64,000 bases of DNA from Hevea brasiliensis (lineage: Eukaryota; Streptophyta; Magnoliopsida; Malpighiales; Euphorbiaceae), in NCBI RefSeq assembly GCF_030052815.1, contig NC_079499.1:83305183-83369182 (forward strand), given 5' to 3'. The notes below the pieces were generated by a model. It worked only from the letters and a program-made list of their open reading frames with translations. It was not told where the DNA came from and did no database searches. The position numbers were made by a program, and so were the translations under genes. Positions 6,802-53,876 of the stretch are shown in pieces (position 1 is the stretch's first letter; every line of letters starts with the position of its first letter).

Positions 6802-7635
6802 TAGTTTTTAAATTCTATTTTCACAAGTTTTTTGAATATTCTTTCTTTATAGTACAACTGCTCAATGTCATTGTTTGATACATATAGTACATTACATTAT
6901 AAATATGCACTAACGGGAGGAAATCTCCTTGTGTTATTTGTTCAGGAGATCTAAGATCCTCGCATTGACCATGGAAGAGGGTGATCATTCAGTCGATCAG
7001 TCTATAGAGGCTGAGGTGCAAGGGGATGCCCCAGCCCTACACAATGTCAGAGGATCAGTAGCACCAGCCCCTGCAGTACCGCAGTTTCCTGCTCAGTTCG
7101 CTCAACAGATGGCTGCAATGTTCCAACAAATGGCTGGTAATGTGCCTACTCAAGTCCCAATACAGACACCAGTGGTACAACCACAGTCTTCTGCTAGATA
7201 GTATGACAAATTGATGAAATATGGGGCTACAGAGTTCAAGGGGACAGTAGATCCTCTGGAGGCAGAACAATGGTTAGAGAGGATGGATAGGGTATTCAAG
7301 AAACTACATTGCACGGAGGAGCTCAGATTTGAATACTCAGTATCTTTGCTACAGGGGGATGCTTATGACTGGTGGAAAACCATTCCCCACAGTCTGGTAG
7401 AACCTGCAGTGCTAACATGGAATGACTTTCTTAGGCAATTCAGACAAAAATATGTCCCCGATGCTTATGTAGACCAGAAGCTGCAAGAGTTCCTAAGTCT
7501 GAAACAGGGGAGTAGATCGGTGGCTGAATATGAAAGGGAATTTTTGTAATGGCCTGGCCCACTAGTGATATTATCCGCTTTGGGCCGAAGCCCTCATGGT
7601 TTTAAAACGCGTCAATAGGGGTTACGAACCACCAA

Positions 7636-7678
7636 CTTATAAACCCAGCATCTCTCCCGTGTTTTGCCGATGTGGGAT
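7636..7678 (-). promoter_or_regulatory. snRNA-type USE and TATA, TRIM-1 LTR copy 1
   Basis: On the minus strand ATCCCACATCG (7668-7678) is followed after exactly 24 bp by TTTATAAG (7636-7643). This is the upstream sequence element and TATA arrangement of plant snRNA genes; 24 bp is the U6/U3 (Pol III) type spacing. Confidence 0.65.
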
Positions 7679-7876
7679 TTGCCTAGGGTGTTACAATCCA
7701 CCCCCCTTATGGGACTCAGCGTCCTCGCTGAGGTTTGCCCCACCGTCGTTCAAGGTTGCATGCGGAGCGGCTCTGATACCACAAATGTAATGGCCCGGCC
7801 CACTAGTGATATTATCCGCTCTGGGCCGAAGCCCTCACGGTTTTAAAACGCGTCAATAGGGGTTACGAACCACCAA

Positions 7877-7919
7877 CTTATAAACCCAGCATCTCTCCCG
7901 TGTTTTGCCGATGTGGGAT
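7877..7919 (-). promoter_or_regulatory. snRNA-type USE and TATA, TRIM-1 LTR copy 2
   Basis: Same motif pair in the second LTR: ATCCCACATCG at 7909-7919 and TTTATAAG at 7877-7884, gap 24 bp. Confidence 0.65.
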
Positions 7920-8663
7920 TTGCCTAGGGTGTTACAATTTTCCCGCCTCAGCCATTATGCAGTAAGTCTACTTTCTACCAGTAGGGAGAGATGTAAGAGG
8001 TTTGAAACCGGCTTAAAGCCTAGTATCATATTACAAGTGGTCAGATTCAAACATAACAACTTCTCTGAACTTATTTCTCAAGCACTAGAATTAGAAAGAA
8101 TTGAATCTGAAGTGGCTCCTGAGAAAAAGAAATCAGAGAAGACAGAAAAAGAGGGAAAGTCAGTAGAACAGAGTTCTAGTGGTCCTACTGGAAAGAGGAA
8201 AAACTTTGGGGGATACAACCGAGGTAGTAAGAAGTCCGATAGAGATAGATTTTCTGGACAGAAACCACCTCGATCCAATCAACAAACTCAACAGAAACCC
8301 AGAAATGCGCTGTCAAATAGACTTTGTGAAACTTGTGGTAAACCACATAGTGGGGTATGTTATAGAGCCGTAGGAGCATGTTTTAATTGTGGAGAGAATG
8401 GTCATTTTGCTAGGGATTGTGTAAATCCATATTGTTCTGGATCATTTACTACACCAAAGGGATCAACCCAAGTTTCTACCCCAAAGAGTTCATCATCAGT
8501 TAGCAGAGGCAGAGGTAGAGGTAGGGGTAGTGCACCTAGAAGTCAGAGTACTGTGAATCAGCCAGAACAAGGTGATGCTTCAGCTGGAGTATACGCTATA
8601 CGGCAGAGAGAAGAGGCTGAGACTTTTGACATTGTTGCTGGTACTTTCTCAATTAGTAACTAA

Positions 8664-9692
8664 GATATATATATGTATTGTTTGACCTGGAGTTTGCATA
8701 ATTTTATGTTAGTATTAGAACTATATGTTCTGTTGTTATTCCTTTACAGGGGAATAAATTTTGATGCATTAGTGATTAGTCCTTTAAGATAAGGATTGTG
8801 ATAATAAGTGAAATTAGTTTTGAAAGAGTTTATCGGCGAAAAGTATTTTCTAACACACTATAAATTATAAAGCTAATTGGCGAGCCTACTTAAGGTAAGG
8901 CAAGAGGACGTAAAAGTAAGATGCAGTAATGGAATTGCTCTAGATGAGGGCAAGGATGTTACTGTTAGTAATTGCTAATAGATATTGTAATCAAAATAAG
9001 ATTCGAATATCAGTAAATTCAAAAAGGATAAAATATCAGAAAATTTGATCTATTGGGATGTATCGTAGTAACTATGCAATGTTCTTGATGTTTATACTGT
9101 AAGCTGCAGATTACAGTACTGACTTGAAATTATTTTATAGAGCTACGTACTACTCGATAATACACCAAGATGAGAATAGTTGCCAACGGCATCTGTTTTG
9201 GTATAGTTATTCCAGGACAGAATTTTATTGTTGGAAATAAGTTTGAAAATCCTACTTAGGGATTTAAAACTCAAAAGTTAGAATATCAAAAGGTTATAGT
9301 TTAGTACAAAAGGGAAGTAAGTTATAGAATATTGATAGATAAAAGGAGTTATGGAAGTAAAAATTCGAACAGTTGGTTCAGATATAACAAAAAAAATATT
9401 ACGAATGTGAGGAAGACTATTGACTAGAATGGTCAGAGGACCAACGAATAGATAAATCATTCTAACATGACCTCAAGGGTCATTCCAGAAGGAACATGAA
9501 CCAAAATATTAGACAGGACAATAGTAAGAGAAGATTGGTGTTATACAAACAAATTAAATGTTGTATTAGATTGTTAAAAGTCTTATACAAATTTGAGGAA
9601 AAGAAGATTATACGATCATATAGAAAGGAGAAAATAAACATATGACTATTGTAAGATGGCTATTGGGTAAAATTTCGTGGATGAAATTTATT
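8664..9692 (+). other. Decayed remainder of A1 internal region
   Basis: The first 150 bp retain faint protease homology in mixed frames (YVLFD, then CSVVIPLQGN, then a broken ALVISPL), matching the A2 protease region at 32890-32700. After that I find no RT, RNase H or integrase motif in any frame. The rest is AT-rich and purine-rich and looks non-coding. Whether it is decayed pol or captured filler cannot be told by eye. Confidence 0.6.
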
Positions 9693-9707
9693 TAAGAGGG
9701 GGAGAAT
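9693..9707 (+). other. A1 polypurine tract
   Basis: AAGAGGGGGAGAAT directly before the 3' LTR. Just upstream is a decayed form of the AAATTTCG..CGAAATTT dyad seen in A2 and B1. Confidence 0.85.
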
Positions 9708-9882
9708 TGTAACACCCCTATGTTCGGTAGTGCGTTCTACTGTTCCGGTGACCAGTGTTGTCCGGACAACTAGGATGCCTAGAACTACACTTCGATATAA
9801 GTGAGGAGACATAAAATAATGAAATACAAGAAAAGAAAATACAAGAAAAACAAAGAAAAAATAATAGCAAAGAAATGTAACC

Positions 9883-9940
9883 AAGTTAAGCGAGCCGAGA
9901 ACCCTAGCGATGGGTGACCGCACTGGGAAGTCACGGCGTG
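9883..9940 (+). other. 5S rRNA-like block in A1 3' LTR (best copy)
   Basis: AAGTTAAGCG, CTAGCGATGGGTGACC and CTGGGAAGTC appear in the same order as in plant 5S rRNA. GATGGGTGACC is an 11/11 match and TGGGAAGTC 9/9, one base further apart than in 5S. Confidence 0.75.
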
Positions 9941-12891
9941 GACCGTTGACTAGCCCTGGACTGCTGGGAATCCTGAAAAATATTTTTAGGACTTAAATAG
10001 ACCCCTATTGAAGTATAAATACCATAAGAAATATTAAATAAAAATTTAATAGTTAGTACAAAGAAAAGTGAGAAATCGAAAAACAGACAAAACCCGGTGT
10101 TACCGAAAAATCAGGAATGCAACCCGAACAGGGGAATTGTGGTCATTTGACATTCCAAGTTGTCTTTTGACCTAAATGTCCATTGAAAATACATGATATT
10201 ACACTTGGAAAATATAATGAAACATTAAATTAGGGGTACCTAATATAAATAGCAAAAATGGGATTCAAATTGAGTAATTAACACATTTAACTTATAATGT
10301 AATTAAATATTGGTGAGTGGAGCACTTTGGGGATTAAATAAACATCATATGGGCAGGTGTACTTCCACTAAACACTTCACCATCTTCATCCATTCTTCCA
10401 TGCCAAAAGGAAGAGTTCCAAATCCTCCATTGCCGCATTTATTCAAGCTTCCAAATCTCCTCCATTTTCACCTCCAAACACCAAAGTCACTTCACCAATC
10501 TTGATCCCCACCTCTCAAGGAAGAAGTAGATACTAAATTTAAGGAGTTTGGTGAAGATTTAACAAGCCTCATCAATAGGTAAGTTTTTGTTTTTTATTAT
10601 TATTTTGTTAAAGTTTGTAAGGATGTTATGGGTATTTGATTTATGGAGAGATTTTTGAGGTTTGATGTTGAATGGGGATGTGTACTTTTGGCATCCATGA
10701 AAACTCCTTGAAGACAGTTTACTTTTGCTTGTAAATGGTGGATTAAAGGATTGATTAAATGTTTATGTGTGTAGGAAATTATTTGGGTGATGTATACTTA
10801 GTATATGTGAATGTGTATTGAAATTTGAGTGCTTGGAAATTTAGGGAATGTAATGCATGAATCGGCAGCCTGGTTTGGTGAACCATAAGGATGTTATTTC
10901 ACATTTCGATTATGGAATATTAATGTTGAATTGTGTTAATTGTTATGGCAGTTTGGGTATATGTGTGATGGTGTGAAGTTGGACATGTAAATGAGCATGA
11001 ATAGGTGATTAAATTGTTGTAAATGAGTTTGACAAATTCTGCACTTTATGGTGTATGTTGAATGTGATTGTAAGCTGCCAAAATGATCAACAATATGTGG
11101 TAAAATATGTTTAGGTTAGGGTACAAACCAGAATTGGCATGAAGGTAAAGTTTGGTAAGTCTTGAAGGTGATCTTGATGAGTATAAACAAAATGTAATAG
11201 GGCAGTTTGTGTTTTGGGCTTAAAACCTTAAGAGTGTGGCTCCAATTGGTATGAGACCAATTGGAGTTGAAACTAAGCACAAAATGTGCCAACTTTCATG
11301 AAGGAAGCTTGCGAAAATTCTACTTGCAAGGTAGCTTGAAAAATGACCAAATCCGGATTAAGTGCAAATAAGGCCTGAAAATTGACCATTTGGGCGGCAG
11401 TTAGTGTTTTGGCCATAACTCACTCAAAACAAATCCAATTGACCTGAAATTTTGACCATGAATAGTTAAGACCTATATATACAAGTCTTATGAAGACACT
11501 AAAGCCCAGCAATGACCATAAGGAAGTCAAACAGCTTGCACAAGTTCGGGTCCAAAAACTGACCGAACCAAAATTGACCTAAAGTGACTAATTTTGATGC
11601 ATTTCGACCAGCAATAGTAAAATAACCATAACTTAGTCTACATAACTCAGAATGACCTGAAATTTTGCCCCACGTGCAATAAGACATAGATCTACAAGTT
11701 TGTAGTTTTGACCGAAACCCGAAAACCGAGGGAACTAGGTCGTCCGGCTAGGTCAAACTAGTATCCCGGAATCCAGCAAGTTGCAATAAAACGCAGTATA
11801 CATGGAAATGAAATTGGTAACATGTACCAACCCTAAAAGACTATCGAATGTGACATATTAGTAACATTAAAACCTAATTTACCTAGAACGCATTGAGGGT
11901 CGACATATTAGGTGATTAAGCAAATAATAGAATTCAGCGAATTAATTATCAAGCATTATCGTCAGAGACAGTTTAAATGAGTACTAAAACACCTCAAATT
12001 GTGTTTCTCAGTTAGCAAAGACTCAGGGAAAGGGAAGGAAACACTGAGTCAAGGCCAGGAGACAGTTATCAGAGGTTTGTGCGCAATAGTTATTTCTTTT
12101 GAATTTTTCACTTGAAATAAATTATGATTATTTGTATGTGATTGTTTTAAATTATGTTTGTGCACAATAATTTTGACTTCTCATTTTCTACTTAAAAATT
12201 TAATTGAACATTATAGTTTTAAATTGTGTCCGTGCACAATACTTTTATATTCACTGCTTTTACTAGCAAATTTATTTGGAGAAATGAGTTATGAATAATT
12301 TTTTATTGCTTTGGTTTTGGGAATATTATTTGGAAATTATTGTGTTGCCAACTTTACAAAAGGAAATTTTGAGATAAAATGTGATTTATGGTTTGTATGA
12401 AATATTATGATTTGAAATTGTTTTGATTCACACTTAGCATGACACTGTTACTATGTTCCTCCTCCATTTATGGGGTGAGTGTGATATATTCCTCCCTCTT
12501 TGACCTATCAGTATGGGGTGAGTGTGATTATGTTCCTCCCTCTTTGACTTGCCAGTCTGAGGTGAGTGTGGATGAGTACTCATTATTCAGCTAGCTTCCT
12601 CCCTCATTGATTTCGATTATTGGGGTGAGTGTGTCTTGTCGTGGTGTACAACACGGAATGTGTGGAAAAATTGTGTCATGGCTTAAATTGTGATATTGAT
12701 CGACAACACTATATTATTCAGTTATTTGATCAAATTGTGTTATTGATGAGAAAAACTGTATTATTCAGTTATTTGATCAAATTGTGTAATTGATTGGCAA
12801 AACTGTGTTACTCAGTTATTTGATCAAATTTGTATTATATGAACTTTGTAAATTTTGTGAACTATTTGATTTGTGAATTGTCAATAAAAGA

Positions 12892-12948
12892 TTTATATAT
12901 ATTGCATTTCAAATTATTATTATGCACCACTGAGTAAATTTTACTCAG
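12892..12948 (+). promoter_or_regulatory. Inferred core promoter and hairpin, A1 3' LTR
   Basis: TTTATATATATT followed 27 bp later by the perfect 9-bp CTGAGTAAA/TTTACTCAG hairpin. Confidence 0.5.
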
Positions 12949-13573
12949 CGATAGCTTTTCATTGCTGTCGCAGGTAGACAGACTGACAGGGCAGCAGACT
13001 AGGCTGCTAGTATTACATTGAGAGATCATCGGGTATATTGAGTATACCACATTTTGCATTTTGTACTGTAATGTATGTTCACTGTATGTATATATTGTTC
13101 TTGGTTTTGAGTAGTTGTAAATTAAAATTGTACATTGAAGTTGTAAAGTAAATTATGAGTTATTTTGGCTTGTAAAATTTGTATTGTATTTCTTTTATCT
13201 CAGTCTTTGAAAAATTATTGTGGATTTGAGTTGAAAAACATATTGTGTTGAATTATGTTGGAGTTTGAGATTGAGAAAAATATTGAAGTGCTTTTTACAG
13301 GTTTTTTAAGAACCTTTTTGTCCAAAATACTGATGGCACTCTCTCAAAATTTTTACAGAAATTATTAATAGTCCAGGTGTGTTAGCTGTTTTACTTCAGT
13401 TCAAAAAGGTTTTTAACACCTGTAAATAGTGCTCACCACTGTAAAAAGAAGTAAGAAAAGTTTTAAAATCCCTTGTAGTGTATTTAATGGGTTATCAGTA
13501 GACGAAGTTGGTAATTCATTAGGTATGCTACGGGATCATGTTATGCCTTACAGAGTGGTAGGGTGTGACAGGT

Positions 13574-14850
13574 TGTCCCTTATAGTAACCCAAAAGGGTA
13601 GGGGGGGGGGGGGAAGGTGAATTAAGTGTTAATTAAAAAATTTGAAGGGTAGGTGAATATTTTTGAGTAAGATGCACAAAGAGAAGGAAGGAAAGAAGAA
13701 ACACAATAGATTTTATAGAGGTTTGGCTATCCCAAGCCTATGTCCTCTCCTCAAGGCCCTCCTTGAGAGTTAACTCTACTAAAATTCTTCTTTGAGTGCA
13801 GAAGAAACACCTTCCAACCACCACAAGAGCAAACCCTTGCTCTTTTATAAATCCCTTTACACTCAAGAGTTATTTAAACTCTATCAAACTCAAGTAATAA
13901 TAAATATTCACAATAACTTTGAACTAACTCTCAGAATAAAGAAATTACAGCTCAAAATATCAAGCTCTCAATAATTAATTATGGTAGCTTAAGTTCTAGA
14001 AAGAGAGAAGAGGAAAAAATCGTTTGAACAGAATAAATTTTCAAAGAAATAGTTGTCTATTTTCTTCAGTCATAAATGGTCTCTATTTATTGTTTTGGCA
14101 AAAAAATTACCATTAGGGGTGCATTAAATACAAATATAACTGTTTAACCACCCAAAACCCCATTTTATCGAGTTGCAGAAATCTAGATTTGACTGTTGAA
14201 GGTTGGAGCTCCAAAAACCATTATTTAAAAAGTGAACATCAGCTGCCGAAGTTCCAAACTTTGGCTACTGAAGTGCTCTCTGAATAGAAAGAGCACTTAG
14301 GCTTTAAAAACTCAAAAATCATCATTTAAAGAGTGAACTTCGGTAGCTGAACTACCAAAGTTCCTAACTTCTACTGACAAAGTGCTCTCTGGAAAAAAAG
14401 GCATAAAAGGGCACTTAGGTTTTAAAAACTCATAACTTTTTTATCCGAACTCGGATTTTTGATCCGTTTAAACCATTAGAAAGCTAATTTAATAAACTTT
14501 TCAATGAAAAAACTTTCATTAACAAATTTGCATTTCTCAAAAGTGAAATTTTCATTTTACTTCCCTTGGTCAAGAAAAAGTTAAAAATAGAAACACTAAG
14601 AAATTTAGATAAACCTAGACTTGAACCATCATAACCAACCAATTGAGATTCACAAGATAAAAGAAAAAATTTACATTGTATTGTCTCCTTAGTCTTGGCT
14701 TCAATTTCTTACTTTCTCTTAATTTTGATTTGAAGCAATTTCTCAATTTTAAACTGGAGACCTACAATATTAACACAAATACTTCCAAGGAAGATTAGTA
14801 GCACACTAATTGTTTATTATCATCAAAACATTGATTAAAACCCTTAGGTA
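13574..14850 (-). repeat. Copia LTR (mate of the gag relic at 1130-2298)
   Basis: With A1 and its duplication removed, this sequence follows the Copia primer site directly. It has TG at 13574, a G run near 13601, the GGCTATCCCAAGCC / CCTCTCCTCAAGGCC block and the AAACATTGATTAAAACCCTTAGG end typical of plant Copia LTRs of about 1.3 kb. The outer border is approximate. Confidence 0.55.
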
Positions 14851-15603
14851 AAAAAAAAACCATTTAATTTTGAAAATTTTAGAAAAATTATTTACCACTT
14901 CTAATCCAGAGATCAAGGCTCGGGATCCATATATGTGTAGGAAATGAGCTAGGCACTCCATAATCGTCTCTAAATAGGGTAAGTTGATTTAACAGTATGT
15001 TCATAATAATTTACCAATAATGTTAATGGAGTTTAAATTATGATATTGGTTCCTTATATTTGATTTGAAATAAAGAAAATGCAAAAATATAAGAACACAT
15101 AAATATCTCACTATTATACTAAGTCAAATACAAAAGTAAGTGAAACGATCCTAAAAGTGGATTTTGACTCTATTTATTTTATTTTTTTTTTATAAAAAAA
15201 AATAAAAAGTAGTCATTTTTAGGTTGATTTTTATATAAAAGTGTAAGAAGAAAAGAGGCTTTGAAATTTGTCAATAAGTGAATTTTGATGAGAAAGAATT
15301 ATAATTCAAGAACATTTTAAAGAGGACCTAAGAGATAATTTTACAAAAAAAAGAAATTAGATCTAGAATTCTTTGCTGAAAATTAAATTTGCTAAAATTT
15401 AAAAAGTGTGCAAAAATGAAAGTGGACATTGAGCTGTTAACTAAAAGTTAAATTAAAAATGATGAATTTTGAAGATGGGACCATATAGTCAAAAGTGAAA
15501 GCTATTTTTGAACAATAATAAAAATAAAATAAAATTTTGATTTTTATTAAGTCTTATAATTAATACATTGTATTGACTTGACCGAGATTTCCATTCATTT
15601 TAA

Positions 15604-16272: not shown

Positions 16273-16804
16273 AAACTAAAAAAGTACTATAAACATTTCA
16301 ACATTCATAAGTTAAACATAATTTAATAACAAAAAGATTTAATACAATCCAAATCAAATATATCATTACTTATAAATTTGCTAAAAATTCAGCAGAGTTT
16401 CCTCTAAAAACAGAAATTTTTCCAAATTATCAACACAATACAATCTGCACAAAATTATCAACATGGCCTGCACATTTATTCATATATTCTCAACAAGAAC
16501 ATCACATAAAAAGATAAATGAAATTGGGCTAATCATGGGTTATCCTAAGCTTTAAACAAGACCTTAATCTGATTGAAATTAGACTAGACTTAAAAAGCTC
16601 TTATTTGCTCTTCTTTTTTAACTAATCATTTTATTTATTTTACCTCTCCAAAATTTTATTAGTAAAAACAAAGTGAATAGAAGAACCTCACCTAAACATG
16701 AGCTAATTCTTATAAAAGCTATTCTATTAGATGACTTGAATAAAAAACTTTAAGGTTACAAAAAAAAAAAGAATTAAGTATTTTCTTATAAAATAATTCA
16801 ATTT

Positions 16805-24625: not shown

Positions 24626-25129
24626 CATTTGTATAATTGAGTTTATTATAATTGTCATTAATATATTGATATCATATAAGATATTGTATTTAAATTACAC
24701 AGTAATCTTTTTTATTAAATCATAATACTATTGAGTTTAGTTAGGTGTCATGAGATTAGATTGTGTGTGTATATATATATACACACATGAAATTGAGTTG
24801 ATTATAATTATATTTAATATATTGATATCGTACAATATCTTGAATTTGTATCATATGGTAATCTTTTTAATTAAATCATAATACTATTGAATTTAGTTAA
24901 GAGTCATGAAATTAGATTAAGCGTGTGTATAATGTAAATATGATTTTTAATCAAATTTAAACATTAAAAATTTATAAATGTAATAATAAATATGATAAAA
25001 TTTTAATTATACATTATTCTTGTGCCATTAGGCTTTTATTGTAGTAAATTATTTATATAAAATAAAAGTAAGTTAAAATTTAGAAATAAAAGCTAATAAA
25101 TTAAAAAAAAAAAATCTAATGTGGGACTT

Positions 25130-25180
25130 TTCCCACATCGGATAGAAAGGGGTGGGGGGGAGTTGTGACTTCCTTATAAA
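25130..25180 (+). promoter_or_regulatory. snRNA-type USE and TATA in hAT copy 1
   Basis: TTCCCACATCG ending at 25140, then TTATAAA at 25174-25180, a gap of 33 bp. This is closer to the Pol II snRNA (U1/U2/U5) spacing. ATGTGGGA lies just upstream and makes a dyad with TCCCACAT. Confidence 0.5.
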
Positions 25181-37767: not shown

Positions 37768-38282
37768 GGTTATATTTCTTTGCTATTATTTTTCCTTTGT
37801 TTTTCTTGTATTTTCTCTTCTTGTATTTCATTATTTTATGTCTCCTCACTCATACTGAAGTGTAGTTCTAGGCATCCTAACTGTCCGGACAACACTGGTC
37901 ACCGGAGCAGCAGAACGCACTACCAAACTTTGGGGTGTTACAATAAGCCTAAAATAGAAGAAATTTAGACTTAAGGGGAATATACAAGTGTGGAATTCTT
38001 ACATAAAAAAAAAGATGAGATGAGTGGGAGACATATACGTGAGATTGACTTATACACCCACTGCCTTAAGGTTTTGAATTAGATGTGGTATCAAGACCAT
38101 AAGTGTGTTCTTTCACAAGGTTCATCAAGAAAGATTCTCCTCAGGCACTTTAGGATCTCCAAATCTCTAACAAGTGGTATTAGTGCTGATGGTTTGGCAA
38201 GGACGAGTATGGAAATAATAATACATGATTCTCATGGTGCTCTGACATGTGGATGGGAAGAGTGTGGAGACTCTTAGTAGCT

Positions 38283-38380
38283 TATTAAAGATTTAGGAAG
38301 CCCAAAGCCCCTGGGGAGAGTCCTTCTTAATGGGCCTTATGAAAGAATACATTTATAGGCTTGACACCACATCTAACCCA
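38283..38380 (-). repeat. Second inverted half-LTR
   Basis: TATTAAAGATTTAGGAAGCC onward matches the left end at 23335-23432. It is again followed by a primer-like TGGTATCAGGGC (38383-38394) and GATGGTTCAG. Confidence 0.65.
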
Positions 38381-38725
38381 AGTGGTATCAGGGCCGATGG
38401 TTCAGTAAGGACGAGTATGGAAATAATGGTCGATGATTCCCATAGTGCTTTGATATGTGGATGGGAAGATTTAGGAGACTCCTAGTAGACCTAATGGAGC
38501 AGGAATGCACTCTTTTGGATAAGAGTACTCTAATGGAGTGGAGACTCTTAGTACACATGATGGCTCAGGTGTGGCTCTTAGAGATGCATGCTTGAGTGAG
38601 TTTGGTGGAGTAATTGGGGCTCTTGGTGACACCGTAATACTCAAGTTAAGAAAAAAGGCTTTCATTTGAGGGAGAGCAAGCCCAGTAATCCTAATATAGA
38701 AGAAATTCACACTTAAGGGGGAGAT

Positions 38726-38925
38726 TGTTGGGAATATACAAGTGTGAAATTCCCACATCAAAAAAAGATAGGATGACTGAGAGACATATAAGTGGGAAGG
38801 ACCCGTACACCCATTTCCTTAAGATTTTGGATTAGATGTGGTGTGCAGTGCATGAGTTTATTCTTTCACAAGGCCCATCAAAAAAGATTCTCCCTAGGCA
38901 CTTTGGGATCTCTAAATCTCTAACA
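38726..38925 (+). repeat. Small LTR (200 bp) with snRNA-type promoter motif
   Basis: TGTTGGGAATATACAAG to TCTAACA, preceded by AAGGGGGAGAT. TTCCCACATCA (38750-38760) is followed after exactly 24 bp by CATATAAG (38785-38792), the same spacing as in both TRIMs. Confidence 0.7.
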
Positions 38926-42193: not shown

Positions 42194-42195
<2 letters not shown>

Positions 42196-45112
42196 TCTAA
42201 TGTATGAAATAGAGCTTGTCCAGAAGGTTTAATTGTTGAGTGGTATATATCAAATGAATCTACCATACATTGTTCTAGAGATTTTGAAGGTGTTAAAACA
42301 AGATTTAATCAACCAACAAGAAATGATAATGATGATGTTAACCCTTTAGCCACACAAGATGCTCCCATGCTTATTATACATGTGATGCCCCTCACTCGTC
42401 TACAGTGTAGCCGAGTGATGAGTGCCATATTTGGTACCGAAGCACCCTATCTTATCTTATCATGTCCATTGTAAATTTTAATATCATTTAAAATTAGGTA
42501 ATCCATGTGTAGAATTTTTTTTTTGTATCTTAATTTTTGCAAATCAATTTGAACAATTTATTTGGGCAGCCTCTAATAACATTTAGGCCTAGTATTTTTC
42601 ATAGGATTTGTTTCCCTATGTCTTATAGTCATTTAGAAATTTTAATTGAAAATTTTCAAGCCTTATGGAATTATTTATAGTCACATTATTGGCTTGAATT
42701 CAAATAGCCTATATTAACATGCTTTCCATTTAGGTCAACAGTTTTGACCTTAAATTTAGACTTCATACATTTATAATTTGAGAATGATGTCTAAAACAAA
42801 GTTTTAGGTCTATTTCTTAGCTTTCCAGATTGGTATGACTCATTTCAATTGAAGACTTCTAGTGGGAAATGTGCTTAAATGAATATGCTAGATTTAATGG
42901 TCACTTGTACCATTCCTAGTTTTGTGCACTAACTTTTACCTATCCATTTGATCAGTTTGTAGCCATTGTTTGGCCACACTTCCTTCATAGAAATTGTTCC
43001 TCTATGTCTTATCTTTATTTTTCCTTTTGAATCATGTTAATTGGATGTTTAAACTCAAGTTATGGTCAGATAACCATAACTAATTCATTTCCAGATTCTG
43101 GTTCCTTAACTAGGCAACTTTTGGACTTAAATTTTGCCTAATTAATGGAACATATTGCAGTTACTTTTAGACATGGTGATCTTCATATAAATTGTTCTCC
43201 TTTGTCTTATGATCATTAAGAAATTTGAATCACAATTTTTCAAGTTTTGTGGAATTATTTAGAGCCAATTAACTAACCTGGACTCATGTACCCTGTGCTA
43301 ACAGGATTTCAGTTCAGGTCAGTGATTGCAGGTCAATTTTTAGGGTTCTTACAGGCAGAATTTGAGGGAGGTTTCTAAAACAAAGTTGGAGCCCTATTTC
43401 TTAGGTTTCTGGAAAGGTATGGCTCATCCCAATTGGATTTTTCTAATGGGAGATATGACTAAAAGACTGTTATGGGGTCAAATGAAGTTTGGTCAGATTC
43501 CAGGTTTTGATGTAGTGACTTGTTCCAACTATTTGACCTAGTTCTCTTGATTTATGGGTTTTGGTCAAAATACTAATTTTGTAGGTCTGTGTCTTTGGAC
43601 ATTTTACCACTGGTTTCATTACATTTGAGTTCTTGTAGACCATGTTATGGCCATTTTGCCAAAACTGGTCGGTTAAGTTTATATCCAGTAGTTTCTGGAC
43701 AACTTAATTCTGGGTAGTTTTGTGACCCAACTTGGGCCAGCAATTTGGTTTGGTTTAAGGCATTTCTGAATTATGTGGTCTTCATTGTAGCCCTATATCT
43801 AAGCTTTCCAATGGTATAAATTTCAGGTCATTTGGACCAGTATAGAGGGAGTTATGACCAAATGAATATGTACTGTTCATTTGGTCATTTTCTGGGTTTT
43901 GTGCAGAGTCATCCGGATTTAGGTAGTGTTTAGGTCAAGTTTTGGACAGAATTTAGGCATGGTTTCTTATGGAAAATAAGCTATTTTGGGTTTAGTTTCA
44001 CCTCCAATTGGCCTCATATCAATTGGAGTCACATAATTTCAGTTATGGTTCATCAAACACAATGGACTCATTGAGTCCCAACCTGCAGAAAATGGCACTC
44101 CCAAATATTCAGTCTCCTCCAACTTCCTTACTTCAATTTACATACATAACACTTTTATAAGCAACAATCTCATCTTAATTTGGTCAATCTCAACAATTAC
44201 ACAAAATCCTCAAATCATGTACACAAACCCTAGTTTCAATTGACCAATTTATACAAACACAACACATTCAACTCCTAATCATATCAACTTATCAAACAAT
44301 CCTCATGGAAACCATTTTCATTATTTAAAAGCATCAAACCCCAAGGGTTCCATGGCTGCCAAAATTAAGGTATTTAATTTTCTTATCATTTGTTTTCATT
44401 TTCATGTGATACTCACTCATCTCATCATTCTTACAAGATTTAAAGAAGAGAGGGAGGGGTATCTTGCACTTACCTTTGTGACCCAACTTGCAAACTTCAA
44501 TTTCCCTTCTTCTAATGGGTATCTAAAGCTTTCTTATGGAGTGGGGAGGATTTTTAGTGAAAAGGGCTAAGAGTTTTGGTGAGCGAGAGAGGAGAAAATC
44601 AAGCTTTAAGCTTGAATAAAAATGGTGGAGGAGAGAACCAAGCAGCCGGCTCATGGAGAGAGAGAAGAGGTGGAGTGGAGAAGAAGATGGGTTGGTAAGA
44701 TTTGTCATCTTGTGTCTTATATATATTTTATTTTTTTTGTACTTTAAATTTTTATAATTTGATAAACCCATTTCGTTTCTTTTCTCTTCTTTTCTTTTTC
44801 TTTTCTCTTCTTCTTCTTTCTAATTCAAATTCATAAATTTAATTTATGTTAATTATTTTATTCTCTCAATTTTATTTTGACATTTAGGTCAAAATTCACC
44901 TCTGGGGGTGAAATGACCAAAATGCCCTTCATGATGTGTAACACCCCTATGTTCGGTAGTGTGTTCTACTGTTCCAATGGCAATGTCTGTCCGGACAGCT
45001 AGAATGCTTGGAATTATATTTAAATATTAGTGTGGAGATATAAGATGGTGAAATACAATAGAGGAAAATACAAGAAAAAAATAAAGAAAAAAAATAAAAG
45101 AGAGAAAATGGA

Positions 45113-45171
45113 ACTAAGCTAAACGGACAAAACCGTACCGATGGGTGACAGTACCGGGAAGTTGCGGCGTG
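45113..45171 (+). other. 5S rRNA-like block, nested family A LTR
   Basis: ACTAAGCTAAACGG, then TACCGATGGGTGAC, then CCGGGAAGTTGCGGCG, about 175 bp from the LTR start. The box A-like part is weaker than in A1. Confidence 0.6.
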
Positions 45172-47194
45172 GGCTGTGCAGTAGCCTTGGACCGCGAGGA
45201 ACCCTAGAAAATATTTTTAGGACTTAAATAAACATCTATTGAAAAATAAATAATTATAGAAATATCAAAGAAAAATTAAATAAATAGTAAAAGAAAAGAG
45301 GTTAAATGTGAGAATTGTGAAAACCTTGGATTAAACAAATAATAAACTTACTTAGTGCTCCACTAACACCTTCAAAGTGGACTTTTTAATCAGTTTGGGC
45401 AGAAGATTCCTTCATCTTCTTCCTTGAGCAAACCAGCTGAATCCTTTGAGAGAAAACCTCCATGGCCGTTTGAGTGAAGCTCCATGCAACCCACTTGGAG
45501 CCATCCTTTCCACTAAGTCCTTTCTTTAAAGTTAATCCTTACCTTGCAAGGAAGATTTTGGTAGTAATTTTAAGGAGGTTTGGTGAGGTTTTGGTCAAGC
45601 TTCAAAAGTGGTAAGTGAGTATTCTCCATTCTTGTTTTATTAAACTTTGAGTGGATGTTGTGGTGAGTGATTTTGTAGAAGAAGTTTTGAAGTTTGATGT
45701 TTTAATGGTGGTACACCATTTCGGCAGCCATGGAAACTCACTATTTGTAACTTGTTTTTACTTATTAATGGTAGTTTAAGATGTTGGTATAAGTGCTTAT
45801 GTGTATAGAAATAATTTGGATAATGTTTACTAAGTGTATGTGTGATAGTGCACTTGGTTGTGGAAGCTTGGAAGCAATTTGAAGGAGATGTGTAATTCGG
45901 CAACTTTTAAAGTGTAGTTGAAATGTGTTGTTTCATGTTTTGATTTATTGAATTATGTTGTTTATGGTGGCAGCATGTATATGTGTATAATAGATTGGAA
46001 TTGGATATGTAAATTGGGTATGTTCATGTGGTTAAATTGTGTAAATGGACTTTGGAAAATTCTGAGTTATAATGTGTATGTTGAGAATGGTTACAAGCTG
46101 TCCAAAATGACCAAAATGTGTTGTTAAGTGTGTTAATGGTATGGTACAAACTAGAATTGGCATGAAAGAGTTAGCTTGGTAAGTATAGAATGTGTAATTG
46201 GTAAGTGATGAAGAATGTGTAGTAGGGCAGTGTAGGTTTTAGCTTAGAACCTTAAGTGTGTACCTCCAATTGGTATGAGACCAATTGGAGGTGAAACTAG
46301 GTACAAAATGTGCCAACTTTCATGGAGGAAGCTTACCTAAATTCTGTCCACAAAGTGACATAAAAATTGACCAAATCCGGAATAGGTAAGTGCAGGCCAG
46401 AATTTTTGACCATATGAACAATAATCATTAGGAGGACCATAACTCACTCAAAACAGGTCCAATTGACCTGAAATTTTTACCATGAATAGTTTAGACATAG
46501 ATCTACAATTCTTATGAAGACACCAAACCCAGAAATGGCCAGAACCAAGCCAAATAGCTTGCACAAATTCGGGTACCAAAACTGACCGAAGTGAAAATGA
46601 CCTAAAAATGACCTAAGCCTACCATTTTAGTGCATTCTATCCAGCATTGGTAAATTGACCATATCTTAGTCTACACAACTCAGAATGACCTGAAATTTTG
46701 CCACGCGTGCAATAAGACATAGACCTACAAGTTTGTAGTTTGGACTTAAGCCCGAAAACCAAGGGAACTAGGTCGTCCGACTAGGTTAAAATAGTACACC
46801 GAAATCCAGTAAATTGTAATAAAATGCAATACACTTGAAAATGAAATTGGTAACATATACCAACACTAAAGGGCTCTAAAATGTGACATATTAGGAACAT
46901 TAAAATTAATTCACCTAGAGTGCATTAAAGGTCAACATTATAGGTTGACTAATAAAATGAATTGAAGGAAATAGTATCAAGAAAATTTAGGTATTGGATT
47001 TTATTATTAGAAACAATTTAACTAAGTACTGAAACACTTTAAATTGTGTGTTTTAGTTGAAAAGGATATTGGGAAGCATAAGGAACATTGAGTCAAGGCT
47101 TAGGGGCAACTCAAATCAGGTTTGTGCTGTCACGACCCAGGGATGGGGTTGGGACATGCTTGTTCAACCAGCTACGCATTAGAGTGAGCTTCAT

Positions 47195-47237
47195 GTCCCA
47201 CATCAGAAATGGGAAGGAAAGATTTGGGCCATATATG
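47195..47237 (+). promoter_or_regulatory. snRNA-type USE and TATA, TRIM-2 LTR 1
   Basis: GTCCCACATCA (47195-47205), then 24 bp, then CATATATG (47230-47237). The last base of the USE has changed from G to A. Confidence 0.6.
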
Positions 47238-47497
47238 TGGGAGCCTTCCTCACCTAGTTAGCACGCTTTTGGGAGTGAAACCTCCTAAGGGACAAATCCA
47301 TGAGGCCCACAAGCCAAAGCGGACAATACTAACTAGAGATGGATTAGGCTGTTACATTGTGGTATCAGAGCTGGTCTCCCTCTAGTACGGTGTGTGGTGC
47401 GAGGAAGCACCAAGTGAAAGTTGGTGGGCTTGTCACGACCCAGGGATGGGGTTGGGACGTGCTTGTTCAACCAGCTACGCATTGGAGTGAGCTTCGT

Positions 47498-47540
47498 GTC
47501 CCACATCGAAAATGGGAAGGAAAGATTTGGGCCATATATG
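47498..47540 (+). promoter_or_regulatory. snRNA-type USE and TATA, TRIM-2 LTR 2
   Basis: GTCCCACATCG (47498-47508), a full match to the plant USE, then exactly 24 bp, then CATATATG (47533-47540). Confidence 0.65.
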
Positions 47541-48300
47541 TGGGAGCCTTCCTCACCTAGTGAGCGCGCTTTTGGGAATGAAACCTCCCAAGGGACAAAT
47601 CTGTGAAGCCCACGGGCCAAAGCGGATAATACTAACTAGAGATGAATTGGGCTGTTACATGTGCACAACTAGTTTTTAACTAATTTTGTTCTGAATATTT
47701 CATATGATTAAATGATATATTTTTCTTATGTATTATGTTTAACAAGCATTAGATTTTTTTCAATGATTATTGAAATTGTTATAATATGTATGAATTTAGC
47801 TTTGTGAAATGGTATTTCCACAAGTATTAAGCATTATTTTGGACTGAATAAATTATGTTTTGGAAAATTATGATAGAACATATTTTGAATTGTGATGGGC
47901 AATTTGCATGGAAAAATGCAAAATTATGATTTGAATTGTGATGAGCATAAAAATTATTGGATATTGGAATTGACTTTGAATCGAATTGTATTGTGATTTA
48001 TGCTCACTAAAAGGATTGTGATATTGTTTTATATCTCACTATAGATGCTTGACTAGGTTATTACCCATCTCTCTCATTTGTTAAGAAGACAATGGAGTTA
48101 GTTGTGTTTTGATTACCATGATGCGTGCACAGGCTTAGATTCTCCTCTTATTAGAGGTTAGATCTAAGTTTTATGTTATGGCCCTTTCGGAAGATTCATT
48201 ATTGTGATATGTACTGTGCATGATAATTCGACCTCCCCGACCATAGGGAGTTAGAATCACCCTGAAGATGGCCCTTTCGGATTAGTCTTGCATAGTTAGT

Positions 48301-48414
48301 GAGATAAAGAATGGTTTTTGAGATAAAAAATGGTTTTTGAGATAAAGAATGGTTTTTGAGATAAAGAATGGCTTTTGAAATAAAGAATAGTTTTCGAGAT
48401 AAAGAATGGTTATT
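48301..48414 (+). repeat. 19-bp minisatellite, six units
   Basis: Six units of GAGATAAAGAATGGTTTTT with few changes, upstream of the inferred promoter of the nested LTR. Confidence 0.92.
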
Positions 48415-48693
48415 GAATAGTAAAGAATTTCGATTTCAAATGGGATTTATGTATAATTGATTTTATTGGAATTAATCTTTATTTCCAATAAATTGTTGGA
48501 ATTACCTTAAATGGTTAGTTATGATTTGATAAATTGAATTTCGTGATCAAAGTCATTTTATACAAATGATTTATATTATTGGCAATGAATATTTTGAGTT
48601 TTGGAATTTGATGAGTATCCAGATTTCCAAATTATTTACTGTAATTTTGGTTAAGGTATATTGTACTATGTTTTAAATTATAGTTGTGCACCA

Positions 48694-48710
48694 CTGAGTT
48701 CACCACTCAG
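48694..48710 (+). other. LTR hairpin, nested family A LTR
   Basis: CTGAGT / ACTCAG, six pairs with a five-base loop, with CAC before and CG after. TTTTAAATTATA lies about 15-25 bp upstream. Confidence 0.65.
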
Positions 48711-49518
48711 CGATAGCTTTGTATGCTGTCGCAGGTGAAAAGAGCATTGAGCAATTGAGTAAGCTTCTTTGAAGAGACATTCAGATCAGCTCCAGGTATG
48801 CCCACGTACATAGGTTTTGATGTATGCATGTAATAATATATATGTAAATTATTTGAGCAGTTGTATAAAAACTCTTATAAAATATTTTGGTATGTAATTA
48901 AATGTAAATTATTGTGATATAAATGTTGAGTCTTGTAATCAATGAAATATTCTTTATGATGAGATTTGTTTGAAAATGAATTGATTTAATTATTGAGATT
49001 TGAATTGTGAGTTGAAATAAAGTTATTGGAGTTGTATTTGAGAAAACATATTGGGAGTGTTTTCCTTTTCAGGTTTGAAGAACTGTTTTCTAAAAACACA
49101 GCCAGCACTTTGCCGAAATTTTAAAAAAAAATTTATAACACCAGATTTTAATCGATGATTTAAATTTCACGAAAATTGTTTTAAAATCCCTTGTAGTATA
49201 TCTAATGGGTTATCGGTAGGCGAAATACGGTAATTCATTAGGTGTACTACGGGATCATGTTACATCTTACGGGGGAGTAGGGTGTGACATGATGCTCATC
49301 AGGTTATTATTATTATTTTTGTACCAGTTAATAAATTATCTAAATTTTATTTTATTTTCTCTAAATTTTTTCTATATTTTCTCAACATTTATTCCATCAA
49401 TTTATGCCTCCTCACTATAGTTTAAGTGTAGTTCCAGACATTCTGGCTGTCCGAACAGACATTAATCGTCAGAACAGTAGAATGTAAGGACTACCTACGA
49501 CAAGGGCATTACAATACA

Positions 49519-50560
49519 AGGCCTCCTAATTGGAAAAACATTTAATGTGACTCTAGATAAGCTAACACTAAAGTAAGTGCATCGCTATGTGATGTATAAT
49601 TATGATGCAATTACTCTATTCATTCAGTATGCACTGAATTTTAGTTTTCTTTTAATCTATTGTGATTTGTTTATGTTTTATCAATATTAGAATTATAATA
49701 CATATCATTGATGTTCTTGACAGGGAGCATAAAAGCATTATAAAGAGGGAACACCATAATAAAACACGCAATTATAGGGTTTCTAAGGTGGAAATAGAAA
49801 GAATTCATCATTCAACATTTGCGAGTGGTTTCGATCATATGTAAGTGTAATGTACCCTTTTCTTCCGAAGAAAGTGTTGGAACATTAAATTTTTAATTTA
49901 TTATACGTTTATTAGTTTGCTTGGTTACTAGAGTTAAAAAGTTCACAAGTTGTTGACCATATTAAATGACAAGCTCAAGGTCCAAATTTTGTGACAAGAA
50001 GATTCAAAGGGTAAGTCATTAAAGGAATTAGGTTCTATATTAAAGAAAGGGAGGCTCAAAGAAAAACCCAAAATAGTAGTGTCATAATCATGACAAAAAC
50101 ATCAAGCTCAAATGATGAGGTTGCATATTATGGTGTGCTTAGTCATATAATTGAGTTGAATTACTATGAGGTTTAAAGTTGTGTTATGTAAATGTGATTG
50201 GGTTGATGTAGAGTGGGCCAAAGGATTAAAAATAGATGCTGTTGGTTTCACACTAGTAAATTTGTTGAAATTTGTGCATAAAGGTGTTCATATAAATGAT
50301 GAACCATTTGTTTTTGCATCACGAGTGCAATAAATGTTTTATGTTAAGGATGTAATTTAGGTTGGTTGGCATATTGTTGTTAAGACAAAGCCCATTGTAT
50401 GAAATGGACGATGAGTTGATATTTGACTCTAATAATGACCTTTTCTCAAATGTTGATGGAGTTATTAAAGAATATGATGAAGATATTAATGGAGCAAATT
50501 GGATCAGGAATGGCATAGAAGGCATTGCCATAAGTGAACATGTTGATGAGGAATAATGAT
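49519..50560 (+). pseudogene. CACTA transposase relic, second part
   Basis: The frame of 39798-42375 resumes after the LTR and its duplication with GLLIGKTFNVTLDKLTLK and VHRYVMYNYDAITLF, the usual block before the C-terminus of TNP2-like proteins. Then come IHHSTFASGF (compare the family's FANWF region), NDEVAYYGVLSHIIELNYY, and decayed pieces up to about 50560. Several stops are present. Confidence 0.8.
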
Positions 50561-51936
50561 TGATTTTAACAGAGGTACTTTTATATTTGCATGGAAATAT
50601 TGACTATTAGTAAACTATTGTCATGTAATGTGGATGCAATTTTTGACCGTATTGTTTAATAATTTTAGTTTTACTTATTTGATTTTGTTATTGCTGATTC
50701 ATTTAGTTGGTATGCTATAGTTATTGCTCCTTCTATTTTGGTAACATCTTATTAGCCAATTGTCTTATGATACAAGGAGGTGCTTTCTTGATTCTTATAT
50801 ATTTCATTCGAGCTTGCTACTGCACTTTGAGATTGTTCTATATCAATTATTGCTAGCTTATTACTGAGATATTTTTGTCCTTCTTTTATTCAGCTATCCT
50901 TACTCCTTAGGTATGTATTTGGATACTTTCTATGCTTCTTTGGGCTTCTTGCTTTCTTTCTATTCCTTGGTGTTTTGCACTTTTTTCAAGTTTTTGCACC
51001 AAGAGATGTTTCCAAATTTGAATTTAATTGAATGTCCTGGAACACCATATTGATAGTTTCTATTTAATCACTTTGGATTAGCTTAGATTTATTTTTTAAA
51101 TACAACTGATGGCACTGATTATTAACTGTACTATAACTCATAAGGTTAGAACTTTACGCAATTATTAAATTACACTACAGCTCATTGGTTATTAATCATA
51201 AATGTATAATAGATTTTATAGCATTAACTAATATGATTATATGTATTGGATTGAAAACATAAATTAAGATTAAAAAGTTTTTATTTTAATTGATTTAGAT
51301 TTAGGCTAAATTTTGAAGATCTTATGGTCTTGAAGATGACTTCAGTTTTATTGAGCTAAAGCTCATTAATAATATTTAAAATTATTTTAATAATTATATG
51401 TCATTTATATAATAAGGTACTTTTATTTTATTTTATTTTAAGTAATTATTTCATTTATAAAATATAAGTTAATATTTTGAATTTTGATAATTAGAGATTT
51501 TAATGACTACAGTGCCCGAGAAAACCCTACCTAAATCCAAAGCTAATTAATAAATTTAAATTTAATATACAAACCCATCCCAAGCCCTATTAAAAGTCAT
51601 TATAAATTACCTTCACCCGTCCTAAATCCAATTACCATTACTCAAATATTATCCGAATCTATTTTATTTTTATATATTTTAATTACTAATTTATATAAAA
51701 ATATTTTTATTAATAATTTATATTTTAAATTATTTAATAATCTTACATAAATATTTAAAATCTAATTATTTAAAATATAATATTCCATAAATTTATAAAT
51801 ATTATTATAAAAACTATAATATTTATAAAAATTATTTATTTATATTAGTGGGTTTGGGTAATGGGCACCTAAAGCATAAAATCTAAACCCATCCTAAAAA
51901 GGATATGAATAATATTCCTCAAATTCAAATTTGTCC
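50561..51936. other. No gene recognised
   Basis: AT-rich DNA, possibly the 3' part of the CACTA element. No terminal repeat was found. Confidence 0.5.
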
Positions 51937-52009
51937 CAAATCTGTACGGGTGTAAATAAGCCCAGACGAGCTGAGCCGAGTCGAGCTTTGAATAGTTCAA
52001 GCTTAGCTC

Positions 52010-52011
<2 letters not shown>

Positions 52012-52074
<63 letters not shown>
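52012..52074. repeat. (AT)n microsatellite in hAT copy 2
   Basis: About 31 AT units close to one end of the element. Copy 1 has a short ATATATAT at the matching place. Confidence 0.95.
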
Positions 52075-52077
<3 letters not shown>

Positions 52078-52317
52078 AAGTATTCAAGCTTTAATATTCA
52101 AATTCAAGCTCGGCTTGTTATATATATACTAAGCTCAAGCTCGATTTGAGCTCGGCTCGTATCAAACTCATTTATAATAAACGAGTCAAGCTCGAGTTTG
52201 GCTCATTTATAAGCTAAACTCAAGCTTAAATTTGAGCACGACTCAAGCTTGTTAATATTATTATATTAAAATAAAATTTAATTTAAATAAAAATAAATTA
52301 AAAATTATAATTACCCT

Positions 52318-52372
52318 TTTATAAGGAAGCCGCAACTCCCCCCCCCCCACCCTTTTCTTTCCAATGTGGGAT
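52318..52372 (-). promoter_or_regulatory. snRNA-type USE and TATA in hAT copy 2
   Basis: Minus strand ATCCCACATTG (52362-52372), 36 bp, then CTTATAAA (52318-52325). The gap contains a G run longer than in copy 1, which explains the 3-bp difference. Confidence 0.5.
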
Positions 52373-53876
52373 AAGTCCCACATCCGATTTTTGTTTTTTA
52401 AAACTTACTTTTATTTTATATAAATAATTTACTACAATAAAAGGCTAATGGCATAATATAATAAATAATTAAAATTTTATCATATTTATCTTTACATTTA
52501 TAAATTTTTAAGTTTTAAATTTGATTAAAAATCATATTTACATTATACACACGCTTAATCTAATTTTATGGCTCTTAACTAAACTCAATAGTATTATGAT
52601 TTAATTAAAAAGATTATCGATCATGTCATACAAATTCAAGATATTATATGATATCAATATATTAATTATAATTATAATCAACTCAATTACATGTGTATAT
52701 ATATGCACATGCACAATCTCATCTCATGACTCCTAACTAAACTCAATAGTATTATGATTTAATTAAAAAGATTACTATGTGATATAAATATAAGATATTA
52801 TATGATATCAATATATGAATGATAATTATAATAAACTCAATTACATAAATGTGTATATATACTCATACACATAATGTAATCTCATAACTTTTAAATAAAC
52901 TCATTACTATTATGATTTAAATTTAATATATTAATAATTTAATTTTTAGGGAATAAGTGGACAATATTAAGTAGGAAATGATTTAAGAGAGAGAAATTTT
53001 AAAGGATGCATAAAAAGAAAATACTTAGAGAAAGAGAAGAATAATTATAATAGATAAATAGCTTAGCATTAAAATTAAATATTAAACTTTTAAAAGTTTA
53101 AAGTTCACGTAAAAGAAAACTAGTCAAAGAGATTGGAAGAGAGGTTACATATAGAGATAGTAACAATAATTATTGGATATATTAGTATTAATTTTGAAGC
53201 TTAACCTTTTAAAAGTTTAAAATCTTAATAGAGAATGAAGAAAAGGAGAGAGATATGCTTCATATTTCAAATCACACCAAAGCTAAATGTATGTAATTTT
53301 AATTTCTTTAGTAATTTGATATACATAAAATAATTCACAATAATTTTTATGTATTTATTATCTAATATTCTAAATTTATTCTCATATAAAAATTAACTTA
53401 TTTTTGTAAAAAAAAAACTAAGGCACAAATAACTATATAATTATAAATATATTTTATATATTGTTTATATCATATTTTTAAATAATATATTATTTTAAAA
53501 ATAAATACAAACAAAATAAATATGTTTATAACATTATAAAATTGCAATAACTAATGTGAATGCTTTTGTAAGTGAGCCTATAAATGAGCTTATTCATGAA
53601 CCTATTCAACGGGCGAGCTCAAAGCCTGCTCAACTAGCACGCAAATCTATTCAACGAGCCAACTCGCAAACCTGTTCAACGAGCCTAGCTTGAACTCAAG
53701 CTCGATTCAAATACTGCTGAGTTCGAGCTCAGCTTGTTTACAAAACGAATCTAAAATTCGAGTTCGAGCTCAAGCTCAGCTCATTTAGAAAACAAGCCAA
53801 ATCGAGCAAAACTTTTATCGAGTCAAATCTTGAGTAGCTCACGACCAGTTTGATTCATTTACACCCTACAAATCTG

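What the first reader, a model, noticed from the sequence alone, without database searches (positions are those of the whole stretch)
7545..52382. snRNA-gene promoter modules (USE + TATA at fixed spacing) in four unrelated small mobile elements
Seen: TRIM-1 (7636-7678, 7877-7919), TRIM-2 (47195-47237, 47498-47540) and the small LTR (38750-38792) each carry (A/G/T)TCCCACATC(G/A), exactly 24 bp, then a TATA word (TTTATAAG, CATATATG, CATATAAG). The gap sequences are unrelated but the length is constant. The two hAT-like copies have the same pair 33 and 36 bp apart (25130-25180, 52318-52372). Known: plant U-snRNA genes use the element RTCCCACATCG plus TATA. U6/U3 genes (Pol III) have them about one helical turn closer than U1/U2/U5 (Pol II), and the Arabidopsis U6 promoter has a 24-bp gap as I recall it. 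Inference: these non-coding elements converged on, or captured, SNAPc-type promoters, with Pol III type in the TRIM/small LTR group and Pol II type in the hAT group. That could explain how tiny elements are transcribed independently of Gypsy LTR promoters.
Basis: partly seen in the sequence, partly recalled or inferred. Interest (0 to 1): 0.88.

Follow-up and report, generated by a model that had tools for sequence, protein, structure and literature searches.

The report
U6-type promoters in plant mini-retrotransposons
Several families of tiny non-coding plant retrotransposons carry, at U6-gene spacing, the two promoter words that plants use for U6 small nuclear RNA genes, which suggests that they are transcribed by RNA polymerase III rather than polymerase II.

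Summary
TCCCACATC occurs 7 times in the window against 0.37 expected. Genome-wide, TCCCACATC-N24-36-TATA has 11,393 places against 226 for the reversed pattern.

Host genes calibrate the spacing. Nine of 9 U6 genes (Pol III) have 26-27 bp; 12 of 12 U1 genes fetched (Pol II) have 33-34 bp. TRIM-1, TRIM-2 and the small LTR have 27, matching U6.

An unpredicted feature: in 9 of 9 families with two-LTR units a TTTT lies 33-39 nt after the TATA, just past the inferred start, in 66 of 75 units. This would fit a Pol III terminator. Depletion of other TTTT runs is weaker: 3 against 6.3 expected in one copy per family, P 0.09.

The hAT-like copies have gaps of 25, 34, 35 and 39 bp, so that half of the claim fails. 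TRIM-1 and TRIM-2 are homologous downstream of TATA, so they are not independent. There are no RNA data.

The parts
7545..7936 (-). TRIM-1: two 151-bp LTRs (7786-7936 and 7545-7695), 5-bp target duplication AAAAT, 392 bp, non-coding
7910..7918 (-). USE TCCCACATC, TRIM-1 5' LTR
7879..7882 (-). TATA of TTTATAAG, 27 bp after the USE, TRIM-1 5' LTR
7845..7848 (-). TTTT 34 nt after TATA, TRIM-1 5' LTR (possible Pol III terminator / R end)
7669..7677 (-). USE TCCCACATC, TRIM-1 3' LTR
7638..7641 (-). TATA, TRIM-1 3' LTR, 27 bp after the USE
7604..7607 (-). TTTT 34 nt after TATA, TRIM-1 3' LTR
7770..7781 (-). primer binding site TGGTATCAGAGC (initiator tRNA-Met by recalled knowledge), TRIM-1
47128..47659 (+). 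TRIM-2: two 229-bp LTRs (47128-47356, 47431-47659), target duplication TGTGC, 532 bp, non-coding
47196..47204 (+). USE TCCCACATC, TRIM-2 5' LTR
47232..47235 (+). TATA (CATATATG), TRIM-2 5' LTR, 27 bp after the USE
47267..47270 (+). TTTT 35 nt after TATA, TRIM-2 5' LTR
47499..47507 (+). USE TCCCACATC, TRIM-2 3' LTR
47535..47538 (+). TATA, TRIM-2 3' LTR
47570..47573 (+). TTTT 35 nt after TATA, TRIM-2 3' LTR
47360..47371 (+). primer binding site TGGTATCAGAGC, TRIM-2
37971..38880 (+). small LTR element (approximate ends); upstream LTR-like copy near 37971 has a decayed USE, downstream LTR copy begins about 38727
38751..38759 (+). USE TCCCACATC, small LTR
38787..38790 (+). TATA (CATATAAG), small LTR, 27 bp after the USE
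38825..38828 (+). TTTT 38 nt after TATA, small LTR
25131..25139 (+). USE word in hAT-like copy 1; TATA 35 bp on (25175-25178); judged not a fixed-spacing module
52320..52371 (-). USE-like TCCCACATT and TATA 39 bp apart in hAT-like copy 2; judged not a fixed-spacing module

Best explanation
TRIM-1, TRIM-2, the small LTR and several further families in this plant genome use a U6-type (gene-external, type 3) promoter inside their LTRs. Inferred mechanism: the plant SNAPc-like factor binds the USE near the start of the LTR; the TATA box 27 bp on recruits TFIIIB with Pol III; transcription starts about 28-29 nt after the TATA, as in the host's U6 genes; the RNA runs through U5, the tRNA primer site, the internal part and the second LTR's U3, and ends at the TTTT about 5-10 nt past the second start. 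R would then be about 10 nt, bounded by start site and terminator, and an autonomous LTR retrotransposon would supply the proteins. Shown here: the words, the spacing, the match to host U6 and mismatch to host U1, the TTTT position, the TRIM anatomy. Inferred: factor, polymerase, start, stop, and that Pol III passes the promoter-proximal TTTT of the first LTR.
Against: No RNA evidence. Depletion of other TTTT runs is weak: one raw copy per family gives 3 against 5.35 expected in 8 families, P 0.17, and 3 against 6.27 in 9 families, P 0.09. Only if TTTT runs private to single copies are set aside does it become marked (0 against 6.2, P 0.0005), and that is too generous: in F4 a second TTTT near TATA+74 to +77 is in 3 of 5 LTR copies, and F10, known from one unit, has a second one; with 2 counted P is 0.03. 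A TTTT at about +6 should also stop Pol III early in the first LTR, and TTTT is a minimal terminator. The small LTR's TATA context (CATATAAGTGGGAAGG) resembles host U1 genes (CATATAAGTAGGAAGC) more than U6. The TRIM-3 family (unit about 363 bp) has USE to TATA of 39-42 bp, outside both host classes, yet the same TTTT position. Junctions of palindromic TRIM-1 copies do not single out the TTTT as an RNA 3' end. Of modules seen singly at 27 bp, L050, L048 and L160 lack the TTTT in the stretch looked at, L051 has it at +22 and L159 at +50.
Confidence: 0.6

Rival explanations
1. The USE and TATA are a SNAPc-assisted Pol II promoter; the TRIM RNA is an ordinary capped, polyadenylated LTR transcript and the TTTT is part of some other conserved R-region element.
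For: LTR retrotransposon transcripts are Pol II products as a rule; a TATA in Cassandra-like TRIMs was read as Pol II by its authors (PMC10853983). The small LTR's TATA context is U1-like. A TTTT at about +6 is awkward for Pol III. TRIM-3 keeps the R region with a 39-42 bp gap. Depletion of other TTTT runs is weak.
Against: Spacing differs from host Pol II U1 (33-34) and equals host U6 (26-27). It gives no reason for a TTTT at a fixed place after the TATA in 9 of 9 families.
Confidence: 0.27
2. The words bind another, non-snRNA factor, or are kept for a non-promoter reason (for example LTR end recognition by integrase, since the USE lies 18 bp inside the TRIM-1 LTR), and the U6-like spacing is inherited from one ancestral LTR.
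Against: F3 and F4 show no homology to the others downstream of TATA, and none to F1 or F2 in the gap, yet have the same 27 bp and the TTTT. The USE lies 18 bp in for TRIM-1 but 68 bp in for TRIM-2, while its distance to TATA is the same.
Confidence: 0.1
3. Chance or compositional artefact.
For: None of weight; some listed N24-36 places look like scattered chance hits.
Against: Reversed-pattern control 226 against 11,393; 0 of 100 shuffles of the window reach 7; spacing peak at 27.
Confidence: 0.03

Closest known systems
TRIMp3: Cassandra, Helenus, Ajax (Kojima 2024, PMC10886601; outline with abstract and the discussion section read)
   Same: Small non-coding LTR elements with PBS and PPT whose LTRs carry a (proposed) Pol III promoter.
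   Different: Those carry gene-internal promoters (5S or tRNA-like sequence). Here no small RNA gene body was found; the promoter is gene-external USE plus TATA. The discussion section names 5S and tRNA types and speculates on 7SL; it mentions no snRNA type.
Plant U6/U3 snRNA gene promoters (type 3 Pol III; passages of PMC9845283 seen)
   Same: USE RTCCCACATCG, TATA one helical turn closer than in Pol II snRNA genes, T-run terminator; in this genome 26-27 bp, the TRIMs' spacing.
   Different: The promoter lies in an LTR and would drive a retrotransposon RNA; a TTTT comes just after the inferred start.
Cassandra-like TRIMs of Asteraceae with a TATA box 48 nt from the LTR 5' end (PMC10853983, passages seen)
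   Same: TRIM LTR with a TATA close to the LTR start (TRIM-1: TATA starts at base 55) and no 5S promoter.
   Different: Its authors read the TATA as Pol II; whether a USE lies upstream there was not checked here.
Plant TRIM families of Gao et al. 2016 (PMC4717578, passages and outline with abstract seen)
   Same: Ubiquitous small LTR elements, with tandem and inverted arrays.
   Different: The words 'promoter', 'TATA' and 'snRNA' do not occur in its main text as held.

Membership tests
[quoted passage not shown]
   TRIM-1 LTR 151 bp, TRIM-2 LTR 229 bp, internal 90 and 74 bp
[quoted passage not shown]
   AAAAT and TGTGC; TGGTATCAGAGC in both. Small LTR: ends and target duplication not settled
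[quoted passage not shown]
   clear in TRIM-1 (AAGGGGGGTGGA); less clear in TRIM-2 (by eye)
Type 3 (U6-type) Pol III promoter | USE word RTCCCACATCG | tested here: met
   TCCCACATC exact in all five modules; flanking bases vary, as in the host's own U6 genes
Type 3 (U6-type) Pol III promoter | USE-TATA spacing of U6, not of Pol II snRNA genes | tested here: met
   27 bp against host U6 26-27 and host U1 33-34
Type 3 (U6-type) Pol III promoter | T-run terminator and T-run-free transcribed body | tested here: inconclusive
   TTTT at TATA+33 to +39 in 66 of 75 units, but raw depletion elsewhere not significant and the TTTT also lies just after the first start
Type 3 (U6-type) Pol III promoter | Transcription by Pol III with uncapped 5' end at about TATA+28 | not testable with these tools
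   no RNA data
[quoted passage not shown]
   U6-type promoter geometry met; no small RNA gene body; derivation from a U6 gene not shown
Cassandra | 5S rRNA-like sequence in the LTR | tested here: not met
   no Rfam match at gathering threshold in the window
Pol II snRNA-type promoter in the hAT-like element | fixed 33-34 bp USE-TATA spacing as in host U1 | tested here: not met
   35, 39, 25, 34 bp in the 4 copies found

The most novel reading that the evidence does not exclude
A class of LTR retrotransposons transcribed by Pol III from a U6-type promoter, in which the R region is set by start site and TTTT terminator (about 10 nt), so that the same TTTT must be ignored next to the start in the 5' LTR and obeyed in the 3' LTR: a Pol III counterpart of promoter-proximal poly(A) occlusion.
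Probability: 0.3. Interest if true: 0.88.

Novelty: new variant of a known kind. Interest (0 to 1): 0.73.

Why it matters
How plant TRIMs are transcribed is largely open, and the Pol III TRIMs proposed so far use internal 5S or tRNA promoters. A gene-external U6-type promoter in LTRs would add the missing third promoter type, could explain thousands of copies made without a Pol II LTR promoter, and would mean that genomes hold thousands of mobile USE-TATA modules able to start short RNAs. It gives exact, cheap tests: cap state, start at TATA+28, U-ending 3' end, and a 7-10 bp spacing change that should swap polymerases.

Tried and rejected
1) hAT-like Pol II module: rejected, spacing 25-39 bp in four copies.

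2) Palindromic TRIM-1 junctions as a read-out of RNA 3' ends: not supported. One search gave 8 matches within 12 nt after GCGTTTT, of which 4 are TRIM-1 (and L044) and 4 are not. One search gave 31 matches within 25 nt after TGAGGGCTT; 8 of these carry the complement of the primer site; their contexts were not fetched.

3) TTTT depletion by single copies: not significant (with five families, gave 0 against 2.7, P 0.04, before F4, F10 and TRIM-3 were added). Ignoring private runs gives P 0.0005, but that count missed a TTTT in 3 of 5 F4 LTR copies; with F4 and F10 counted P is 0.03.

4) U2 as Pol II calibrator: the Rfam search did not complete. The one exact match to a U2 word has no USE upstream and was not used; U1 was used instead.

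5) Viral contigs: 76 stretches, not examined and not used.

6) Whole-genome count at 33-34 bp: asked, not answered, so no genome-wide Pol II-type count exists here.

7) Papers: in searches no listed title or abstract start describes USE/U6-type promoters in TRIMs or LTR retrotransposons. I saw listings, plus passages of PMC4918200, PMC10853983, PMC7215508, PMC9845283 and PMC4717578 and the outline and one section of PMC10886601. The library holds open-licence papers only.
Full report
WHAT WAS CHECKED. The window lies in a 1.88-Gb genome held as G000; that it is a plant follows from its U6 promoters and TRIM elements. TCCCACATC occurs 7 times in the window, 0.37 expected. Genome-wide the N24-36 pattern has 11,393 places against 226 for the reversed pattern. 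In 99 first-listed places, all on the first contig, 74 are at 27 bp and 92 at 25-28. A second pattern, which drops most copies of the main families, gives 2,800 against 290, and 83 listed loci peak at 25 (22), 27 (31) and 40 (10). The 40-bp peak is the TRIM-3 family by its gap sequence.

HOST CALIBRATION. Of 48 U6 matches scored (the first look had 146,055 loose candidates, so counts are lower bounds), 9 look like real U6 genes. All 9 have a USE-like word and a TATA-like box 26 or 27 bp on, box to +1 28-29 nt; several boxes are degenerate (TTTATTTT, TTCATAAG) and four USE words carry one change (sequences). Eighteen exact U1 5' ends exist; the 12 fetched have 33-34 bp and TATA to +1 31-32, three with one change in the USE. 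So in this genome the two classes lie about 7 bp apart and do not overlap, and the three window families fall in the U6 class. That plant U6/U3 promoters have the USE about one turn closer to TATA than Pol II snRNA genes is stated in PMC9845283 (passages).

ANATOMY. TRIM-1 (7545-7936, minus strand) has two 151-bp LTRs, PBS TGGTATCAGAGC, a purine tract and the target duplication AAAAT; TRIM-2 (47128-47659, plus strand) has two 229-bp LTRs, the same PBS and TGTGC. The small LTR is the downstream copy of an element whose upstream LTR-like copy, with a decayed USE, lies near 37971.

THE TTTT. With the U6 rule (start 28-29 nt after TATA) every family with two-LTR units has a TTTT 33-39 nt after the start of the TATA word: F1=TRIM-1 37 of 43 units at one column, F2=TRIM-2 3 of 3, F2b (L046) 1 of 1, F3 (L047) 1 of 1, F4=small LTR 2 of 2, F9 (L041) 3 of 3, F10 (L052) 1 of 1, F11 (L153) 6 of 7, TRIM-3 12 of 14; in all 66 of 75. 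Units were taken by a signature match and a length of 180-800 bp; some come from overlapping loci but are distinct sequences. The downstream LTR of L049 (F4) lacks it, and that of L052 (F10) reads CTTT there. Elsewhere in the units: F1 has other runs at two places in 3 and 1 of 43 units, F4 three in one of 2 units each, TRIM-3 one of 14, F10 one of 1. Looking at five F4 LTR copies, a second TTTT near TATA+74 to +77 is in 3 of 5, so F4 is not a one-TTTT family. Shuffles of one copy per family expect about 6.2 body runs; the chance of none is 0.0005-0.001, of at most two 0.03. Counting raw single copies gives 3 against 6.27, P 0.09, in 9 families and 3 against 5.35, P 0.17, in 8, where AAAA runs are as expected (15 against 15.2). 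Families seen as single modules are mixed: L053 has TTTT at +37 (and a second at +63), L158 at +36, L161 at +34, L157 at +32; L051 at +22, L159 at +50; L048, L050, L054 and L160 none in the stretch looked at (other F11 copies, related to L054, do have it). The position is the strong signal; depletion elsewhere is only suggestive.

MECHANISM. Best reading: U6-type Pol III promoter, RNA from TATA+28 of the first LTR to the TTTT of the second. Inferred steps: SNAPc, Pol III, start, stop, read-through of the first TTTT. The Pol II rival is kept at 0.27, chiefly because the TTTT lies so close to the start, the small LTR's TATA context resembles U1 genes, depletion of other TTTT runs is weak and TRIM-3 keeps the same downstream layout with a 39-42 bp gap.

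THE hAT HALF. Only 4 copies with the same TATA context were found; gaps are 35, 39, 25 and 34 bp.

KNOWN KINDS. Pol III TRIMs (TRIMp3) have been proposed for 5S and tRNA promoters (PMC10886601). A U6-type member would be a new variant. A TATA-bearing Cassandra relative was read as Pol II by its authors (PMC10853983). In my ten searches no listed title or abstract start describes the USE in TRIM LTRs; the library is open-licence only.

SIDE FINDING. Of the 48 U6 matches, 39 are not U6 genes by their upstream sequence; many sit between TRIM LTR ends. In 21 places genome-wide the U6 T-tail is followed within 0-4 nt by CAAATGTAA, the complement of the TRIM-1 LTR/PBS edge, with 0 in the reversed control: 17 at the edge itself, 3 with one and 1 with two extra bases of the PBS complement (the 0-4 limit is set by the pattern). 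In 34 of the 39 the U6 copy starts at nucleotide 3-15, in the 5' hairpin. A reverse transcriptase jump from the plus-strand cDNA end, after primer tRNA removal, onto the 3' end of U6 RNA would fit; other LTR families show such joins too, so this does not test the promoter claim.

Noticed in passing
L018, L019, L021, L022, L025, L029, L030, L032, L034, L038, L135-L137, L139, L140, L149: U6 snRNA copies, mostly 5'-truncated, joined to TRIM LTR ends; the U6 T-tail meets the TRIM-1 LTR/PBS edge almost exactly (21 places genome-wide with the pattern), often as LTR>U6<LTR palindromes. Looks like template jumping from cDNA ends to U6 RNA.
   Followed up: partly
L141, L143, L147, L150, L152: In the TRIM-3 family the U6 T-tail is joined to the sense LTR start region (AAAGGTCCYTTNGGCAAATCCC) instead, so either cDNA end may be the partner.
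   Followed up: no
L014, L027, L035, L037, L144, L146: Another small LTR-like family flanking U6 copies contains, in several of these loci, GGTTCGAATCC and a GCTCAATTGGTAAGAGG stretch, like tRNA B and A boxes; possibly a Helenus-type Pol III TRIM. ARAGORN finds no tRNA there.
   Followed up: partly
L044, L168, L169, L172 and places: TRIM-1 copies are often palindromic, joined at the PBS edge, with junctions at many LTR positions and apparent short microhomologies.
   Followed up: partly
[not shown]
   Followed up: partly
G000:C6:102039507-102392337: Ten exact U1 5' ends within 0.35 Mb, most with near-identical USE-TATA promoters.
   Followed up: no
window 25110-25140 and 52360-52390: Both hAT-like copies carry the USE as a back-to-back palindrome (ATGTGGGA...TCCCACAT).
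   Followed up: no
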